A DNA stretch of 64,000 bases from Bacteroidales bacterium (lineage in GTDB: Bacteria > Bacteroidota > Bacteroidia > Bacteroidales > UBA932), in assembly GCA_017428325.1 (NCBI GenBank), contig JAFRRA010000005.1, positions 190,007 through 254,006 on the forward strand, in the 5' to 3' direction. Under the pieces are notes generated by a model. That model worked only from the letters and a program-made list of their open reading frames with translations. It was not told where the DNA came from and made no database searches. Shown piece by piece: positions 56,783 through 61,681 of this stretch. Position 1 is the first letter of the stretch, and every line of letters begins with the position of its first letter. The translations under genes were made by a program, and so were the position numbers.

Positions 56783-57790
56783 ATGAGAACTGATAGATTG
56801 GATTTATATAAGCAGCTTGAACTTGAAAGAAATTCTAAGCTTTTGGTTTACATAACAAGCACTAGGCAAGGTTTAGAAACTCAAATAGCGAATGATGTAT
56901 TATCGAAGTTTTCCGAGCACCTAGATAAAATCGGCGACACCTCAAAGATATCATTGTTTTTATATACAAATGGAGGGCAGACATTAACCGCATGGAGCCT
57001 TGTAAATTTGATCAGGAGCTTCTGCAAGGATTTTGAAGTTATAATACCTGCTAATTGCTTCAGTTCAGGTACTCTGATATGTTTGGGCGCAAATAACATT
57101 GTCATGACAAAGCAAGCCATGTTAGGACCTATTGACCCAAGCATAAACGGTCCTTTGAACCCGATGATTCCAGGAATATCAGATCCAACTGCAAAAGTTC
57201 CGGTTAGTGTGGAATTTGTCAATGCCTATATCAATATGGCTAAAAATGATTTCGGGATTAGGGATCAAAAATTTCTTACCGAAATCCTTCTTAATTTATC
57301 TGAAAAAATACACCCGTTGACTCTTGGGCAAGTATATAAGTCCAAAAGCCAGATTCAAATGCTAGCCAAAAAACTAATGCATTGGCAAAATCTTGGTGAA
57401 GAGAGAGAAAATATAATCATCAATTTCTTGTGCAGCGAGTCAGGAAGCCATGACTATTCTATTAGAAGAAATGAGGCAAAAGATTATCTTGGTCTAAATA
57501 TTGAAAAGCCCTCAGACAAGCTTTATGCAATCATAAAAAGTATCTTTGATGATATTAGATCAGAGTTAGAGCTTGAATCACCATATGACCCCGCTATTTT
57601 ATTAAATCAGGCCAATAATTATAATTATTCATTCAGAAGGGGTTTAGTAGAGTCTATTGACAATGGAACAGATGTTTTTATAAGCGAGGGCGTTCTTTCT
57701 AAACAAATCATAGCGCCAGTTCCAGGAAGACCGGCTCAAATTAATCTTAGTGACAATAGAATTTTTGAAGGTTGGAAACATGAAAACTAA
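56783..57790 (+). CDS. SDH/ClpP-fold serine protease-like cargo protein
   Basis: A 335-aa protein whose first ~190 residues match the SDH-type (DUF114-like) Clp-fold serine proteinases: SKISLFLYTNGGQTLTAWSL, the nucleophile region NCFSSGTLICLGANNIVM (Ser94 likely) and LGPIDPSI. The C-terminal part is helical and unlike known families. There is no membrane helix, in contrast to many relatives. The gene is visibly richer in A and T than its neighbours and has its own promoter and upstream terminator, the signs of a moron acquired separately. Role unknown; toxin control, defence or superinfection exclusion are possibilities. Confidence 0.75.
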   Translation: MRTDRLDLYKQLELERNSKLLVYITSTRQGLETQIANDVLSKFSEHLDKIGDTSKISLFLYTNGGQTLTAWSLVNLIRSFCKDFEVIIPANCFSSGTLICLGANNIVMTKQAMLGPIDPSINGPLNPMIPGISDPTAKVPVSVEFVNAYINMAKNDFGIRDQKFLTEILLNLSEKIHPLTLGQVYKSKSQIQMLAKKLMHWQNLGEERENIIINFLCSESGSHDYSIRRNEAKDYLGLNIEKPSDKLYAIIKSIFDDIRSELELESPYDPAILLNQANNYNYSFRRGLVESIDNGTDVFISEGVLSKQIIAPVPGRPAQINLSDNRIFEGWKHEN

Positions 57791-57962
57791 AGACAATAAA
57801 CATTCGTTGACTGAAACTGGATATAATCCAAAGATTCAGCTTTCAAGTGGCACTTTCTGCAAAAAGAATTATTATGATAGTTCTGCTTCTAAAAATACTC
57901 TTGCCGAGTATATGAAGAATAGAACTATTATAAAAACCGACACACTAAAAATAATCTTATAG
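57780..57962 (+). CDS. 60-aa protein coupled to cargo protease
   Basis: A 60-aa basic, AT-rich gene product (MKTKDNKHSLTETGYNPKIQ onwards) whose ATG lies 11 bp inside the protease gene, so they are coupled. No family recognised. Being next to the 3' end of the convergent MuF-toxin gene it could be an immunity or antitoxin-type protein, but this is only positional reasoning. Confidence 0.5.
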   Translation: MKTKDNKHSLTETGYNPKIQLSSGTFCKKNYYDSSASKNTLAEYMKNRTIIKTDTLKIIL

Positions 57963-57998: not shown

Positions 57999-58029
57999 TT
58001 TGTGAAATAAAAATATTTTTTTATTTTTG
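57999..58029 (+). promoter_or_regulatory. perfect promoter pointing antisense into the toxin gene
   Basis: TTTG at 57999-58002 and TATTTTTG at 58022-58029 with a 19-nt spacer. Transcription would begin near 58036 and run antisense to the 3' end of the MuF-toxin gene. A perfect 7-bp hairpin (AAGGAAG 58068-58074 with CTTCCTT 58087-58093) followed by a T-rich stretch could end a short RNA. Confidence 0.5.
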
Positions 58030-58075
58030 CATCGGTTCTATCCCGAAAGGGTTTGGACCACCGGAGGAAGGAAGG

Positions 58076-59371
58076 CTATTTGAAGTCTTCCTTTCGTATT
58101 TTAAATCCGTCTGATGTTATCGCTTTCTCAGAGTATGTGCAGTCCAACCCTCTCCATATCACCGTAATATTAGACACTCTGTTTTTCTTTACGAAACTGC
58201 ACCTATTATGCATTGCGTGCGACAATTCATTTAAATCAGCATTATCGCTAATTTTCAGAACTAAACTTGATGCTTGTTTTCTACCCTCCTTTATTGCCAT
58301 ATCGTAGGAGTTATAGGTATTCCTAGTATTGACTTTATACTCCTGCTTATAGCCTAGCGTATGATTAAAAGAGTCGGCATTTTTTACTCCTGGTTTGTTG
58401 TCAATCTTCGGCATAAGGTCTATGTCATACCCATATTTATTCGCTAGATAAACTGCAATTGATTTATTTTCTTCTCTTTCATCTGGACTCTGCGTACGAT
58501 GTTGCCGTACCCGTCCCTTTTCTGTAGGTATGGTTTCATATCCGCAAACCTCTGTCTTCAGAAATACGCATTCTTGGCAAATTTGATTTTCCGGATCTCC
58601 GGAGTAGAGTTTGAGGTTGGCTTTGGTGCAACCTTTACACTTGCTGAGGGTGTAAGGGTTGTAGTCTGGGAAAGTCTTCTGCTGCTTGCCAGGATTGAAG
58701 TTGAACATTCCCTTCTTGTCGTTGGAGAGGGCTTTTGCGCCACGCTGCATAGCCTCGTTGTGAGGTGTGGCTTCGTGCATATACCTGAGCACCTGAACTA
58801 CCGTGCAGCGGCAGTTCCAGCCATTAGGCGGATAATAGGAATCCCAGAAAGAGTCTGATGCAGGAAGTGTGACATCGTGCAAGGCTGCGTGCTCCGGCCT
58901 TACGGCTCCGTCATTGGCTGTTCGGTACTGGAGGTAGTATTCATCCTCATCTTGGGCAAACTTCTCCCATTTGGCAGCCATATCTGAAGAAGCGGAAGCA
59001 AAGTTGTACTCTGCCCTGAGATATCTTTCGTTGTAGTTCTGGTCTATCTTTTTAACATCGTTTAAGAACTGGTTAAATGACTTTTTATTGCCGTTTTCAT
59101 CAAGAAGCAGGGAATAACTTTCATTGATCTCGTGGAAAGTCTTGAATCCACTGAAAATGTAGTCTGAGCGTTGAAGATTCTCTCTCATGGAATCTGACAT
59201 CTCTGCTTTGGCAAAGGTTGAGTCCAGGATGTCTGCATGGGTCTGTATGAAACTCTCAACTTCCGGTTCACGAAGTATGTCTATCCGGAGAGCTGCGCCT
59301 TTCTCTTTGTAGAGAGCAGACATCATTCCTTTGAACTTTTTGCGGAGCCTCTCCAGGAGTTCAGATGGCAC
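58076..59371 (-). CDS. MuF minor head protein with C-terminal nuclease-toxin-like domain
   Basis: Coordinates are for the GTG start (431 aa); the same frame is open up to the slippery site at 59485, adding 38 codons with no ATG, and the GTG has no Shine-Dalgarno. Residues ~110-195 are the MuF/SPP1 gp7 head-morphogenesis domain (RTANDGAVRPEHAALHDVTL, PPNGWNCRCTVVQV). A cysteine-rich linker follows (CKGC, CQEC, 245-276). Residues ~297-431 look like a CdiA-type tRNase/BECR toxin: IAVYLANKYGYDIDLMP, the NADSF...EYKV core (Glu344, Lys346) and KEGRKQASSLVLKIS. The toxin part is AT-richer than the rest, a sign of module exchange. Such MuF-toxins ride in the capsid. Confidence 0.8.
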   Translation of the reverse strand: MPSELLERLRKKFKGMMSALYKEKGAALRIDILREPEVESFIQTHADILDSTFAKAEMSDSMRENLQRSDYIFSGFKTFHEINESYSLLLDENGNKKSFNQFLNDVKKIDQNYNERYLRAEYNFASASSDMAAKWEKFAQDEDEYYLQYRTANDGAVRPEHAALHDVTLPASDSFWDSYYPPNGWNCRCTVVQVLRYMHEATPHNEAMQRGAKALSNDKKGMFNFNPGKQQKTFPDYNPYTLSKCKGCTKANLKLYSGDPENQICQECVFLKTEVCGYETIPTEKGRVRQHRTQSPDEREENKSIAVYLANKYGYDIDLMPKIDNKPGVKNADSFNHTLGYKQEYKVNTRNTYNSYDMAIKEGRKQASSLVLKISDNADLNELSHAMHNRCSFVKKNRVSNITVIWRGLDCTYSEKAITSDGFKIRKEDFK

Positions 59372-59456
59372 TTCTTCTTTCGCCAGGTTCAGCGATGATC
59401 CAGGAGTTTCATCCTTTGCCGTCCATCCGGATATGATCTGCTCATATCTTTTGTGC

Positions 59457-59491
59457 AGCCCCTCATAGTCGGAGGGGCTTAGTCGAAAAAA
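59457..59491 (-). promoter_or_regulatory. candidate -1 ribosomal frameshift signal (portal to MuF)
   Basis: Read leftward: T TTT TTC (59491-59485) in the portal zero frame is a classical X XXY YYZ heptamer. After a 5-nt spacer containing the portal stop comes a perfect 8-bp stem AGCCCCTC/GAGGGGCT (59479-59472 with 59464-59457) and a 7-nt loop. A -1 slip continues with R-L-S-P-S-D-Y into the MuF frame. Confidence 0.75.
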
Positions 59492-60735
59492 GAACCGGAG
59501 TCCTGTTTGCTTCCCATTAGGGAAGGAAGCCCGTTATTTCTTCTCTCTCCGGCTGGAATGCCGTATTTGTCCTGGAAGTATGAGCCATCAACCTCATAGT
59601 TGTTGAGTACCATCTGCTCAATGGCCACCTGCTGTTCAGGAGTGTAATCTACCGGATCATCCCAGTTGAAGGTAAGACCTTTCACAGGGAAACCGTGCTT
59701 TACCATCTTTGGCAGCAGCTGGTTGTTGACTACATCCCTGACCATATCGCAGTATGCCTCTATGAGGTTCTTGAAGACTTTCATGTGTGTCTGACTCTGA
59801 CTCAGGGAGCTGCCATCTTCTATGGTCATGGTCTGCTTGAGTACCAGTTTGGAGAGCTCGGAGTTGCAACGGTCTATCCTCTTGTCATAGACATTGAAGG
59901 CATCGCCTTTAGAACTTTCCACGAGTTCTATGTCTGTGGTGTCATCAAAGACTCCCCAGGCTTTTGCACCCATATTCTCCATCATAGAGGCTACCTTCTT
60001 CCTTTCAGATTCATCCCTTGCTGTTGTCTTGGCTATCCTTACCGGAATGCCGAACATCTCAGCGAAAGTATCCCAGAAAGCTCCGGCATATTTCTTTGGG
60101 ATGGTATGCAGTGCTGCTTTCTTGTATAGGCCAAGATCATCTTTCTTTCCGGCTTCAATAAGCCAGTCCACATACGGTGCGCTGCGGTAGTCTATTCCAG
60201 ACTGCCACCCCTCTCCCAGTGTCTTTACGATGCGGCCATATTCCGGAATGACATGCTTTCTGGGAATGAGTTTCACTCCGTCAAAGTTGATGTTGCCGTT
60301 CTCATCGGTGATGACATCGCCGAGCTCAACGAGCGAATGACCCCAGTAGATGGATTCCAGGATATAGTCGAGAAGATCCTTGAACCACTCAGTGTTGAAA
60401 TAGACTTCTGCATCCTTGACAGTATCGCCTTTAGGGTTGGTGAGCTTAAAGCTGCGGCATTTGACAAAGCCGTTCACCTGTCCTATAGCACCTGTAAGAT
60501 GGGCATCAAGGTCCACATCATTGTATATGTCATAAAGCTGCAGCCTCTGCGGATTCTCCACATTCACGGCCAGCTGGCAAGCATATCTCCAGTGGGAGAT
60601 GTCATGCTCTGTAAGCATATCCGTGTATCGCTGAAGATCCACTACAACCTTCTTGAGTCTCTTGCGGTCTGAAGCCTTAGAGAGGTCAAACGTGCCGTGT
60701 TTTTCGCTTTTGAGTATGTTCTTTTTCTTTTCCAT
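59479..60735 (-). CDS. phage portal protein (DUF935, Mu gp29-like)
   Basis: A 418-aa portal, the dodecameric ring through which DNA enters the head. DUF935 landmarks: AHLTGAIGQVNGFVKCRSF, the WGHSLVELGDV stretch, LIPRKHVIPEYG, ALHTIPKKYAGAFWDTFAEM, FGIPVRIAKTTARDESE, and SLSQSQTHMKVFKNLIEAYC. It ends SGSFFD-stop right at the frameshift signal; a -1 slip at Phe416-Phe417 would fuse the portal to MuF, giving about 886 aa. It is downstream of the Gp36-like gene in the leftward packaging operon. Confidence 0.9.
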   Translation of the reverse strand: MEKKKNILKSEKHGTFDLSKASDRKRLKKVVVDLQRYTDMLTEHDISHWRYACQLAVNVENPQRLQLYDIYNDVDLDAHLTGAIGQVNGFVKCRSFKLTNPKGDTVKDAEVYFNTEWFKDLLDYILESIYWGHSLVELGDVITDENGNINFDGVKLIPRKHVIPEYGRIVKTLGEGWQSGIDYRSAPYVDWLIEAGKKDDLGLYKKAALHTIPKKYAGAFWDTFAEMFGIPVRIAKTTARDESERKKVASMMENMGAKAWGVFDDTTDIELVESSKGDAFNVYDKRIDRCNSELSKLVLKQTMTIEDGSSLSQSQTHMKVFKNLIEAYCDMVRDVVNNQLLPKMVKHGFPVKGLTFNWDDPVDYTPEQQVAIEQMVLNNYEVDGSYFQDKYGIPAGERRNNGLPSLMGSKQDSGSFFD

Positions 60736-60768
60736 ATGTTTGTTTTCTAGGGATCGATCCTTTCCGGA

Positions 60769-61188
60769 TTACCATATGTTCTTCAGGCGTTTTGCGCTGC
60801 CCCAATGGAGCTTCTGTCCTATCTGCTGTCCATCTTCGTCTTCAGCCAACGGAAGATCCGGAGTAACTGTGCCGGCCTGGACTTTCTCCAGCCATTTGAT
60901 AGCCTGGTCATAGCGTTCCTTCCTGGTTTCGGCACCCATCCTGGCAGAGTTGGAGGACACCATATGGTACAGGGCAATGTCGCAGGTATACATTACTATC
61001 TGCTTGTTGCGGTTTTCTCCTTCAGCCGCAAAGATGGCCGCACAGTCATACTTTGGCCTGAGGTATCCGGATATCTCTTCTATGGCTTCAGCTTCTGCAT
61101 TCTGCCGGTTGGTCGTATCTGTCTGGCTCACCACTCTCAGGGCAGCTTCACCGATAACAACCTTATAATCTTCTTCAGTGATGAACAT
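60769..61188 (-). CDS. Gp36/DUF1320-like phage protein
   Basis: A 139-aa protein; the start at 61188 (MFITEEDYKVVIGEAALRVV) matches the family, while a longer in-frame version has no support. DUF1320 proteins are neck or head-completion proteins in Mu-like phages. AIEEISGYLRPKYDC and TCDIALYHMVS are the typical helical core. It lies 33 bp upstream of the portal and 11 bp after the 79-aa protein. Confidence 0.8.
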   Translation of the reverse strand: MFITEEDYKVVIGEAALRVVSQTDTTNRQNAEAEAIEEISGYLRPKYDCAAIFAAEGENRNKQIVMYTCDIALYHMVSSNSARMGAETRKERYDQAIKWLEKVQAGTVTPDLPLAEDEDGQQIGQKLHWGSAKRLKNIW

Positions 61189-61199
61189 ATACTTACGTT

Positions 61200-61439
61200 T
61201 TATTTGTCGTTCTCTTTTTCTGCTTCCTCCATCTTTGCTCCAAGGGCAACCAAGCAAAGAGCCATAACAGCCTCGCTGTCTTTTAGAGCAGATGACGGCA
61301 CCTCAACCCCTGGGCTGTTTTTGATTTCGGAAACTATCCTCTCAAGCATTTCTTTTTCTGGTGCCTTGGCCTGCATTTTGAGAATTGCGGCTGTTCCCTC
61401 CAGGACATCATTATCCAATTCAATAATCAATCTTGCCAT
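61200..61439 (-). CDS. small acidic phage protein
   Basis: A 79-aa protein (MARLIIELDNDVLEGTAAIL onwards), mostly helical, ending in a charged EEAEKENDK tail. No family recognised. It is in the packaging operon between the 78-aa and the Gp36-like genes. Confidence 0.6.
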   Translation of the reverse strand: MARLIIELDNDVLEGTAAILKMQAKAPEKEMLERIVSEIKNSPGVEVPSSALKDSEAVMALCLVALGAKMEEAEKENDK

Positions 61440-61444
61440 AGTTG

Positions 61445-61681
61445 TCAGTCTGTTATGAATAGAGCTATCTTTTCTATGTCTTCTACGGTGGTGCCTTTCT
61501 TGAACCTCTTCCTCCGGATAAGTTCTTTAATTGTTTTCTTTGGAATCACTATAGGCTTTCCTCCGAAGTAGAGGACATAGTATCTTACGTTGAATGTCTT
61601 TGCCAGAGCTTTTGCCTGTCTTACGGCTCTTTTGTACCTGACGGCAAATATCAGGTGCCTTATTTTCTTGAACAGTTTCAT
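61445..61681 (-). CDS. small basic phage protein
   Basis: A 78-aa basic protein; the start at 61681 (MKLFKKIRHLIFAVRYKRAV) follows the terminase stop closely (1 bp apart), and longer in-frame versions would lie inside the terminase gene. High Lys/Arg content suggests nucleic-acid binding or a portal/terminase partner. No family recognised. Confidence 0.6.
   Translation of the reverse strand: MKLFKKIRHLIFAVRYKRAVRQAKALAKTFNVRYYVLYFGGKPIVIPKKTIKELIRRKRFKKGTTVEDIEKIALFITD

What the first reader, a model, noticed from the sequence alone, without database searches (positions are those of the whole stretch)
59457..59491. Programmed -1 frameshift that would fuse portal to MuF-toxin
On the minus strand the portal gene ends TCT TTT TTC GAC TAA. 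The T TTT TTC run is a textbook slippery heptamer in the right frame. Five nucleotides later an 8-bp GC-rich perfect hairpin begins. The -1 frame then runs without a stop through 38 codons into MuF, which has only a GTG without a ribosome-binding site. Spacing, stem and frame all agree. Frameshifting is well known in phage tail chaperones (gpG/gpGT), but I know of no established case joining portal and MuF. It would fix the ratio of plain portal to fused portal-MuF-toxin in each 12-mer.
Basis: partly seen in the sequence, partly recalled or inferred. Interest (0 to 1): 0.9.

Follow-up and report, generated by a model that had tools for sequence, protein, structure and literature searches.

The report
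Ribosomal frameshift fusing portal to MuF
At the end of a phage's portal (DNA-gate) gene sits a conserved signal that should make some ribosomes slip back one letter, so that a share of the portal proteins carries an attached capsid-interior protein with a toxin-like tail; the same signal recurs in many related phages, in some of them working the other way round.

Summary
Comparison makes it a programmed -1 frameshift signal, not chance. Of 117 portal/MuF junctions with MuF in the -1 frame (portals <90% identical), 116 have an in-phase slippery heptamer in the usable overlap (6.8 expected); 98 have strong heptamer plus strong stem (0.05 expected); 90 of 93 Phe-Phe pairs there are spelled nnT TTT TTY (8.1 expected). 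The stem tip covaries (2 of 8 pairs). Seven outgroup junctions, Mu included, have no heptamer and an ATG start. In relatives whose portal and MuF form one ORF, heptamer and stem often persist in the linker, where slippage would end translation and release plain portal, a dnaX-like inversion (7 of 16, 0.19 expected; second set 17 of 27, 0.58 expected). So both forms, plain portal and portal-MuF, appear to be needed. No protein or slippage efficiency was measured; ring stoichiometry is inference.

The parts
59479..60735 (-). portal gene (Mu gp29-like, PF06074), 418 aa, 0-frame product
   Evidence: Pfam PF06074 E 4.5e-73; PHROG 113 portal; PDB portal chain 8rka E 2.6e-5
59485..59491 (-). slippery heptamer T TTT TTC, codons nnT TTT TTC
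   Evidence: 116 of 117 homologous -1 junctions have an in-phase heptamer
59480..59484 (-). 5-nt spacer between heptamer and stem (overlaps the portal stop codon)
   Evidence: spacer 5 or 6 nt in 86 of 100 junctions with strong stems
59457..59479 (-). putative stimulatory stem-loop, 8 bp, 7-nt loop
   Evidence: covariation
59479..59481 (-). portal stop codon TAA (its last base is the first base of the stem)
58076..59485 (-). -1 frame extension: MuF (PF04233), 469 aa from the shift site to the stop; no ATG/GTG/TTG before 59371
   Evidence: PF04233 E 3.7e-15; TIGR01641
58079..58516 (-). variable C-terminal part of MuF, perhaps CdiA_C-like (predicted nuclease toxin)
   Evidence: kin in L105, L216, L019, L009, L037 at 31-45% identity; CdiA_C passes its Pfam cut-off in L216 (36% to the window) and L168 (22%); no such match for the window itself
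59430..59448 (-). second, A+T-rich hairpin further downstream; role unknown, not tested in homologues
   Evidence: fold

Best explanation
The site is a programmed -1 ribosomal frameshift. Most ribosomes read through T TTT TTC and stop at TAA, making plain portal. A fraction, slowed by the stem 5 nt downstream, slip back one base with both tRNAs, pass the portal stop and continue through MuF and its variable C-terminal part, making a portal-MuF fusion. As portals form rings, this would put a limited number of MuF molecules at the inner face of the portal without separate targeting. Shown here: sequence anatomy, deep conservation, covariation at the stem tip, use of the -1 frame, outgroup contrast. 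Inferred: that slippage happens in the host, its efficiency, incorporation of the fusion into virions, any later cleavage or injection. In many fused relatives the element is inverted (0 frame = fusion, -1 = early stop = plain portal), so the conserved purpose is probably to make both forms. The confidence given is for the frameshift in the window; for the inverted form as a working site I would say about 0.7.
For:: in-phase heptamer in 116 of 117 -1 junctions (portals <90% identical) and 78 of 79 (<70%); expected 6.8 and 5.5 from same-length windows in the portal bodies; wrong phases 36 and 17 of 117, 28 and 14 of 79; strong heptamer + stem (score >=17, 3-7 nt away) in 98 of 117 zones versus 0.05 expected; 90 of 93 Phe-Phe pairs in the zone are nnT TTT TTY, 8.1 expected from codon use, 1 of 34 in portal bodies; the residue before varies (R, S, G, P, D, N); tip pairs UA12/AU9/GC8 and CG16/GC6/AU2 in 32 sequences, 96.9% of cells paired, slid controls 31-59%; spacer 5-6 nt in 86 of 100; in several lineages, the p00 (hankyphage) one included, heptamer and stem together lie 33-51 nt before the portal stop, so the stem goes with the heptamer and not with the stop; before the first start codon differences favour -1 codon position 3 (132/111/192) and the -1 peptide RLSPxDYxGLH is kept; 23 of 116 junctions have no ATG before the MuF domain, 4 have no ATG/GTG/TTG; inverted signals in fused relatives; types recur in different parts of the portal tree; 0 of 7 outgroup junctions have a heptamer, all have ATG. 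A AAT TTT sites are not homopolymers, so polymerase slippage is a poor explanation there.
Against: No ribosome profiling, mass spectrometry or reporter data. 19 of 117 zones lack the strong heptamer + strong stem combination; 13 of 116 junctions with other heptamers show no fold signal (median z 0.15), and 8 of 9 A-run junctions have 9-11 A, which fits transcriptional slippage. Stems taken singly are often modest: 43 of 82 T TTT TTC sites have z below -2 (5 of 116 body controls do). In one search only 2 of 8 pairs vary on both sides, 5 never vary, and the counts of such pairs and of pair types do not exceed the shuffles (489 and 370 of 500 as high). Before the first start more codon changes are non-synonymous (175) than synonymous (93). 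Some junctions, p00 included, have an ATG near the portal stop. 24 of 43 fused ORFs carry the strong signal; 19 do not. Some Bacteroidota phages (L045, L046) have plainly separate genes, and L295 is a -1 junction without a strong heptamer.
Confidence: 0.93

Rival explanations
1. Two ordinary overlapping genes: MuF is made alone from GTG 59371 (or ATG 59326) by re-initiation or an unannotated start; heptamer and stem are incidental.
For: Mu, DMS3, B3, Alteromonadaceae B23, a Vibrio and a Faecalibacterium phage use an ATG overlapping the portal end; a GTG exists in the window; p00 has an ATG at the junction.
Against: Start codons are not conserved (101 of 116 junctions without ATG within -100..+40 nt, 4 with no ATG/GTG/TTG) while heptamer, spacing and stem are; the -1 peptide before the first start is conserved.
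Confidence: 0.04
2. Transcriptional slippage on the T6 or A run rather than ribosomal slippage yields the fusion.
For: 8 of 9 A-run junctions have 9-11 A and A-run sites show no stem signal: plausible for that minority.
Against: 81 of 93 T-class sites have exactly six T; A AAT TTT sites are not homopolymers; the phase and a stem 5-6 nt downstream are ribosomal hallmarks.
Confidence: 0.02
3. Sequencing error or a decaying gene: the true sequence is a simple fusion or a disrupted gene.
For: The window is from an unnamed draft genome; L062, L073 and L143 have out-of-phase or interrupted portals.
Against: Same T6C and frame in independent assemblies and in 82 of 117 junctions with portals <90% identical; the -1 frame stays open over the whole MuF.
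Confidence: 0.01
4. In fused relatives the heptamer and stem are a fossil of an older two-frame design, not a working release site.
For: Fused lineages are scattered among two-frame ones on the tree, so fusion by a small indel seems easy; the -1 stops after T TTT TTC sites (15-27 codons) could be chance, and at A AAT TTT sites of L092 and L274 the stop comes only after 30 and 6 codons; 19 of 43 fused ORFs have no strong signal.
Against: The heptamer and differently spelled but paired stems survive in fused portals 49-69% identical to their query; at the A AAT TTT sites of L007, L067, L267 and L271 the -1 stop follows at once.
Confidence: 0.25

Closest known systems
lambda gpG/gpGT-type tail assembly chaperone frameshift (and the putative SPP1 17.5/17.5* one)
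   Same: -1 slippage near the 3' end of a structural-module gene yields a minority C-terminally extended form; for SPP1 a putative shift at the same heptamer UUUUUUC is described (PMC6316719 passages)
   Different: here the pair is portal and MuF, head components, not tail chaperones before the tape measure gene
dnaX tau/gamma frameshift
   Same: one shift site gives a long and a short form; in different bacteria the shift makes the shorter or the longer product (PMC4066793 passage), as seen here between lineages
   Different: unrelated gene; dnaX also has an upstream Shine-Dalgarno-like stimulator (recalled), which I did not look for here
Single-gene portal-MuF fusions (Microbacterium phage subclusters EA3, EA5, EA8 and cluster EB, PMC7302621; PBECR fused to MuF and portal domains, PMC5512222; PHROG 35074)
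   Same: portal and MuF on one polypeptide (passages; PHROG 35074 matches both window proteins at different profile positions)
   Different: no portal-MuF frameshift in the passages seen; in the window the fusion is optional and made by recoding
MuF polymorphic toxins (PMC5576092; Bxa, PMC11699363)
   Same: MuF domain encoded next to the portal, variable C-terminal toxin; [quoted passage not shown]
   Different: the word frameshift does not occur in the main text of either; only passages were seen
SPP1 gp17.1/17.1* (and Listeria phage PSA, known to me from a reference title and recall)
   Same: frameshift gives two forms of a virion structural protein
   Different: other genes; SPP1 17.1* and PSA are +1 cases

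Membership tests
-1 programmed ribosomal frameshift (X XXY YYZ + 3' stem) | slippery heptamer in the 0-frame phase within the overlap | tested here: met
   window; 116 of 117 homologous junctions
-1 programmed ribosomal frameshift (X XXY YYZ + 3' stem) | stable stem or pseudoknot a few nt downstream | tested here: met
   8 bp at 5 nt; spacer 5-6 nt in 86 of 100
-1 programmed ribosomal frameshift (X XXY YYZ + 3' stem) | phylogenetic conservation with covariation | tested here: met
   covariation confined to 2 of 8 pairs
-1 programmed ribosomal frameshift (X XXY YYZ + 3' stem) | trans-frame protein observed above background | not testable with these tools
tail assembly chaperone gpG/gpGT | G/T chaperone genes just upstream of the tape measure gene | tested here: not met
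   genes are PF06074 portal and PF04233 MuF
dnaX-like release frameshift | -1 shift leads to early stop and a shorter product | tested here: not met
   in the window the shift lengthens; by sequence met in fused relatives L006, L007, L036, L040, L044, L067, L092
MuF polymorphic toxin | MuF domain (PF04233) encoded directly downstream of portal | tested here: met
   E 3.7e-15
MuF polymorphic toxin | variable C-terminal toxin domain | tested here: inconclusive
   window C-terminus 45% identical to L105, whose CdiA_C match is below the cut-off; only L216 and L168 pass it among the 10 proteins
MuF polymorphic toxin | adjacent immunity gene | tested here: inconclusive
   nearest small ORF is a 70-aa convergent one at 57750-57962 without a PHROG or NCBIfam match

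The most novel reading that the evidence does not exclude
Mu-like phages of Bacteroidota build a deliberately mixed portal ring: a frameshift element sets how many portal subunits carry a tethered MuF with its toxin-like tail, and the default can flip in evolution (0 frame plain, -1 fused; or 0 frame fused, -1 plain) while production of both forms is kept, with long A-runs as a third way.
Probability: 0.6. Interest if true: 0.87.

Novelty: new variant of a known kind. Interest (0 to 1): 0.82.

Why it matters
Portal rings are normally treated as 12 identical subunits (recalled). A conserved recoding element that gives a share of the subunits an internal MuF would explain how MuF reaches the capsid interior in low copy number, would mean that MuF proteins in phage records of this family are probably mis-annotated at their starts, and offers a natural experiment, since related lineages seem to reach the same two products with the default inverted. 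It turns MuF copy number and its anchoring to the portal into a simple reporter and mass-spectrometry question.

Tried and rejected
Intrinsic terminator: the scan of 58000-61500 lists one terminator-like site only, at 58066-58095 on the + strand, not at the stem. Known RNA family: no Rfam match up to E 1 in 58000-61000. Chance heptamer: rejected. Read error: very unlikely given the homologues. Solved structure of the C-terminal domain: nothing significant (best E 0.41). Structure prediction of MuF could not be run: ten submissions of alignment A3 were answered 'busy'.

Literature: ten searches, seven of them with a frameshift term. One search found 95 papers with portal, MuF and frameshift and listed 20, so 75 were not seen even as titles. 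Passages of fifteen papers were looked at, plus one whole section of PMC4066793; none was read whole. No portal-MuF frameshift was found. PMC3199440, a survey of recoded bacterial genes, was not held, and the supplementary tables of such catalogues could not be opened, so an unnamed entry there is possible.

Rows dropped and limits of the counts. Of 219 sequences (218 loci and the window; some loci are the same place twice, e.g. L001/L013 are the window's own), 218 had a portal; 154 remained at <90% portal identity (117 sep-1, 15 fused, 8 + 6 without MuF, 6 sep+1, 2 sep0), and the 117 are the base of most counts; one of them has no heptamer, hence 116. In one search the fused ORFs number 18, 16 after removing near-copies; there and near-copies were removed by an ungapped comparison, so some with an indel may have stayed. 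The second fused set is not wholly new: L252 and L277 are 97% and 91% identical to their queries L044 and L006, and L287 has the same heptamer and stem letters as L040. The covariation set is 32 of 48 T TTT TTC junctions with the heptamer 3 nt before the stop and CCCC in the arm: 33 had at least 5 of 8 pairs at the window's loop size, and I left out L081, whose loop differs. This selection favours pairing; the slid controls and the variable tip pairs carry the argument. The 27-of-51 family count rests on a locus-to-family list that I copied by hand; it leaves out L224-L245, the more distant phylum-level loci, most of them without a MuF match. The tree has 102 rows and only L219 as an outgroup phage. 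The seven outgroup records are my choice from the 60 rows shown of 327 records and. The sep0 and sep+1 loci were looked at once; L062, L073 and L143 were described only.

Full report
What is there. On the minus strand of a Mu-like phage region (large terminase 63242-61683, PHROG 38; gp36-like protein ending at 60769, PF07030; portal 60735-59479; MuF to 58076) the portal gene (PF06074, E 4.5e-73) ends TCT TTT TTC GAC TAA. The heptamer T TTT TTC (59491-59485) is in the phase needed for tandem slippage; five nucleotides later an 8-bp perfect stem starts (59479-59472 with 59464-59457). After a -1 shift the frame is open for 469 codons through MuF (PF04233, TIGR01641). The first possible start codon in that frame is GTG 59371, 38 codons on.

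Survey. Portal relatives were gathered by protein or profile, never by the heptamer: genomes of the same genus, order, class and phylum, IMG/VR, GTDB contigs and named phages. Of 219 sequences 218 had a portal; the MuF frame relative to the portal was -1 in 173, +1 in 6, 0 in 3; MuF was in the same ORF in 17, and none was found in 19. Among 154 with portals under 90% identical, 117 are -1 junctions.

Heptamer. In the stretch where a shift could work (from the opening of the -1 frame to the portal stop) 116 of 117 junctions hold an in-phase X XXY YYZ heptamer with Y = A or T; windows of the same length in the same portal genes predict 6.8; the two wrong phases give 36 and 17. With portals under 70% identical it is 78 of 79 against 5.5, wrong phases 28 and 14. 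By the last heptamer of each zone: T TTT TTC 82, T TTT TTT 10, A AAT TTT 10, A-runs 10, others 4, none 1. At codon level, 93 junctions have a Phe-Phe pair there and 90 spell it nnT TTT TTY, against 8.1 expected from each gene's codon use and 1 of 34 Phe-Phe pairs inside portals; the residue before it varies, so the conserved T is not a protein constraint. The T run is exactly six in 81 of 93 T-class sites.

Stem. With a strong heptamer and a strong stem starting 3-7 nt after it, 98 of 117 zones qualify, 0.05 expected. The gap is 5 or 6 nt in 86 of 100. Single fold z-scores are moderate: median -2.0 for T TTT TTC sites, 43 of 82 below -2, against 5 of 116 in portal bodies; sites other than T6 and A AAT TTT show nothing (13 sites, median 0.15). 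The arm is mostly GCCCC..GGGGC, but its tip changes with compensation: in 32 aligned sequences the seventh pair is U-A 12, A-U 9, G-C 8 and the eighth C-G 16, G-C 6, A-U 2; 96.9% of cells pair and sliding the partner drops this to 31-59%; the other pairs hardly vary, so covariation rests on two pairs. In several lineages, p00 among them, heptamer and stem sit together 33-51 nt before the portal stop: the stem goes with the heptamer, not with the stop codon. As a specificity control, over 252 sequences (1.5 Mb, redundant) 157 of 884 ORF ends with an open -1 frame carry the combination and 153 of these are portal/MuF junctions; in the window it is 1 of 23.

Coding beyond the stop. 101 of 116 junctions have no ATG in the MuF frame from -100 to +40 nt of the portal stop, 23 none before the MuF domain, 4 no ATG, GTG or TTG at all. 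The -1 peptide before the first start is kept among the window's kin (RLSPxDYxGLHxRY). Differences before the first start favour third positions of the -1 frame (132/111/192 over 17 pairs), though non-synonymous codon changes (175) outnumber synonymous ones (93), so constraint there is loose. In the hairpin loop most changes are silent in the -1 frame (GAC/GAT, TAC/TAT). In the six annotated phage records with a -1 junction (L043, L047-L051) the MuF CDS starts at an overlapping ATG or about 8 to 275 nt after the portal stop, and none is marked as joined.

Outgroups. Mu, DMS3, B3, Alteromonadaceae B23, a Vibrio phage, Faecalibacterium FP_Mushu and a Salinibacter phage have no in-phase heptamer near the portal end (0 of 7) and the next gene starts with ATG (the Salinibacter gene is not confirmed as MuF). 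Some Bacteroidota phages (Flavobacterium, L045, L046) have plainly separate genes too. Named carriers of the signal are phages or genomes of Bacteroidota (Bacteroides, Elizabethkingia, Porphyromonas, Bacteroidales bins); most loci are unnamed. Among 51 taxonomic families with a locus in my hand-made list, 27 show the -1 form with strong stem.

The inverted form. In 18 loci portal and MuF are one ORF (16 without near-copies). There 7 of 16 linkers hold an in-phase T TTT TTC or A AAT TTT followed at 4-6 nt by a strong stem, 0.19 expected from the rest of the same ORFs. The 0 frame makes the fusion and a -1 shift ends at a stop 0-30 codons later, leaving plain portal. I then made a second test with IMG/VR relatives of three fused portals: 40 of 44 loci are fused; of 27 without near-copies 17 carry the signal, 0.58 expected; L286 and L275 fall just short (score 16). 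A few of these are close to portals already seen (L252, L277, probably L287). The -1 stop follows after 15-27 codons at T TTT TTC sites; at A AAT TTT sites it follows at once in L007, L067, L267 and L271, but after 6 codons in L274 and 30 in L092. On the portal tree the fused-with-signal label needs 5 changes and all labels together 26, so lineages have switched more than once. The same duality, shorter product in some bacteria and longer in others, is described for dnaX (PMC4066793 passage).

Mechanism. The economical reading is that these phages need both plain portal and portal-MuF. [quoted passage not shown] That is inference: neither slippage nor ring composition has been measured, and in inverted lineages the ratio could differ. 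A-run junctions (8 of 9 with 9-11 A) may use transcriptional slippage to the same end.

The cargo. The C-terminal part of the window's MuF resembles the tails of L105, L216, L019, L009 and L037 at 31-45%. CdiA_C (PF18451) passes its cut-off in L216 and in L168, the latter only 22% like the window, so a CdiA_C-like nuclease is plausible but not shown for the window. p00 carries a glutamine deamidase domain (PF15644) and the Porphyromonas fused protein a PBECR2 domain: the polymorphic-toxin pattern of PMC5576092 and PMC11699363 (passages).

Novelty. Frameshifting, MuF toxins and portal-MuF gene fusions are each known. Ten searches of the held library (seven with a frameshift term; only 20 of 95 papers listed in the closest one) gave no report of frameshifting between portal and MuF, nor of an inverted form. 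I rate it a new variant of a known kind, with strong comparative support and no biochemical proof yet.

Noticed in passing
L044:3390-5948, L006:1492-3972, and most of L252-L263 and L277-L290: Portal and MuF in one ORF with slippery heptamer and stem kept in the linker: an inverted frameshift design in Porphyromonas and other phages.
   Followed up: yes
L023, L047, L049, L064, L070, L165, L170, L178: Junctions with runs of 9-11 A; possible transcriptional slippage to the same end.
   Followed up: partly
L010:4048-4605; also L012, L147, L164, L214: Roughly 190 extra residues between the frameshift-encoded N-terminus and the MuF domain, open in the -1 frame; the L012 piece has no Pfam match up to E 1.
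   Followed up: partly
L062, L073, L143: Portals out of phase or interrupted; in L062 and L143 a T TTT TTC run still stands at the junction. Sequencing error or decay; left as they are.
   Followed up: no
L217: Bin labelled Clostridia with a related portal, nine A before the stop and MuF in the +1 frame; possibly misbinned or another slippage mode.
   Followed up: no
window 56783-57790 (+): SDH/ClpP-like serine protease gene convergent to MuF (PF01972); p00 and P. gingivalis phage records also have a protease gene in the opposite orientation near by.
   Followed up: no
window 59430-59448 (-): Second, A+T-rich hairpin downstream of the stem.
   Followed up: no
L043, L047, L048, L049, L050, L051: MuF start codons in deposited phage records differ widely and probably truncate the protein.
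   Followed up: partly
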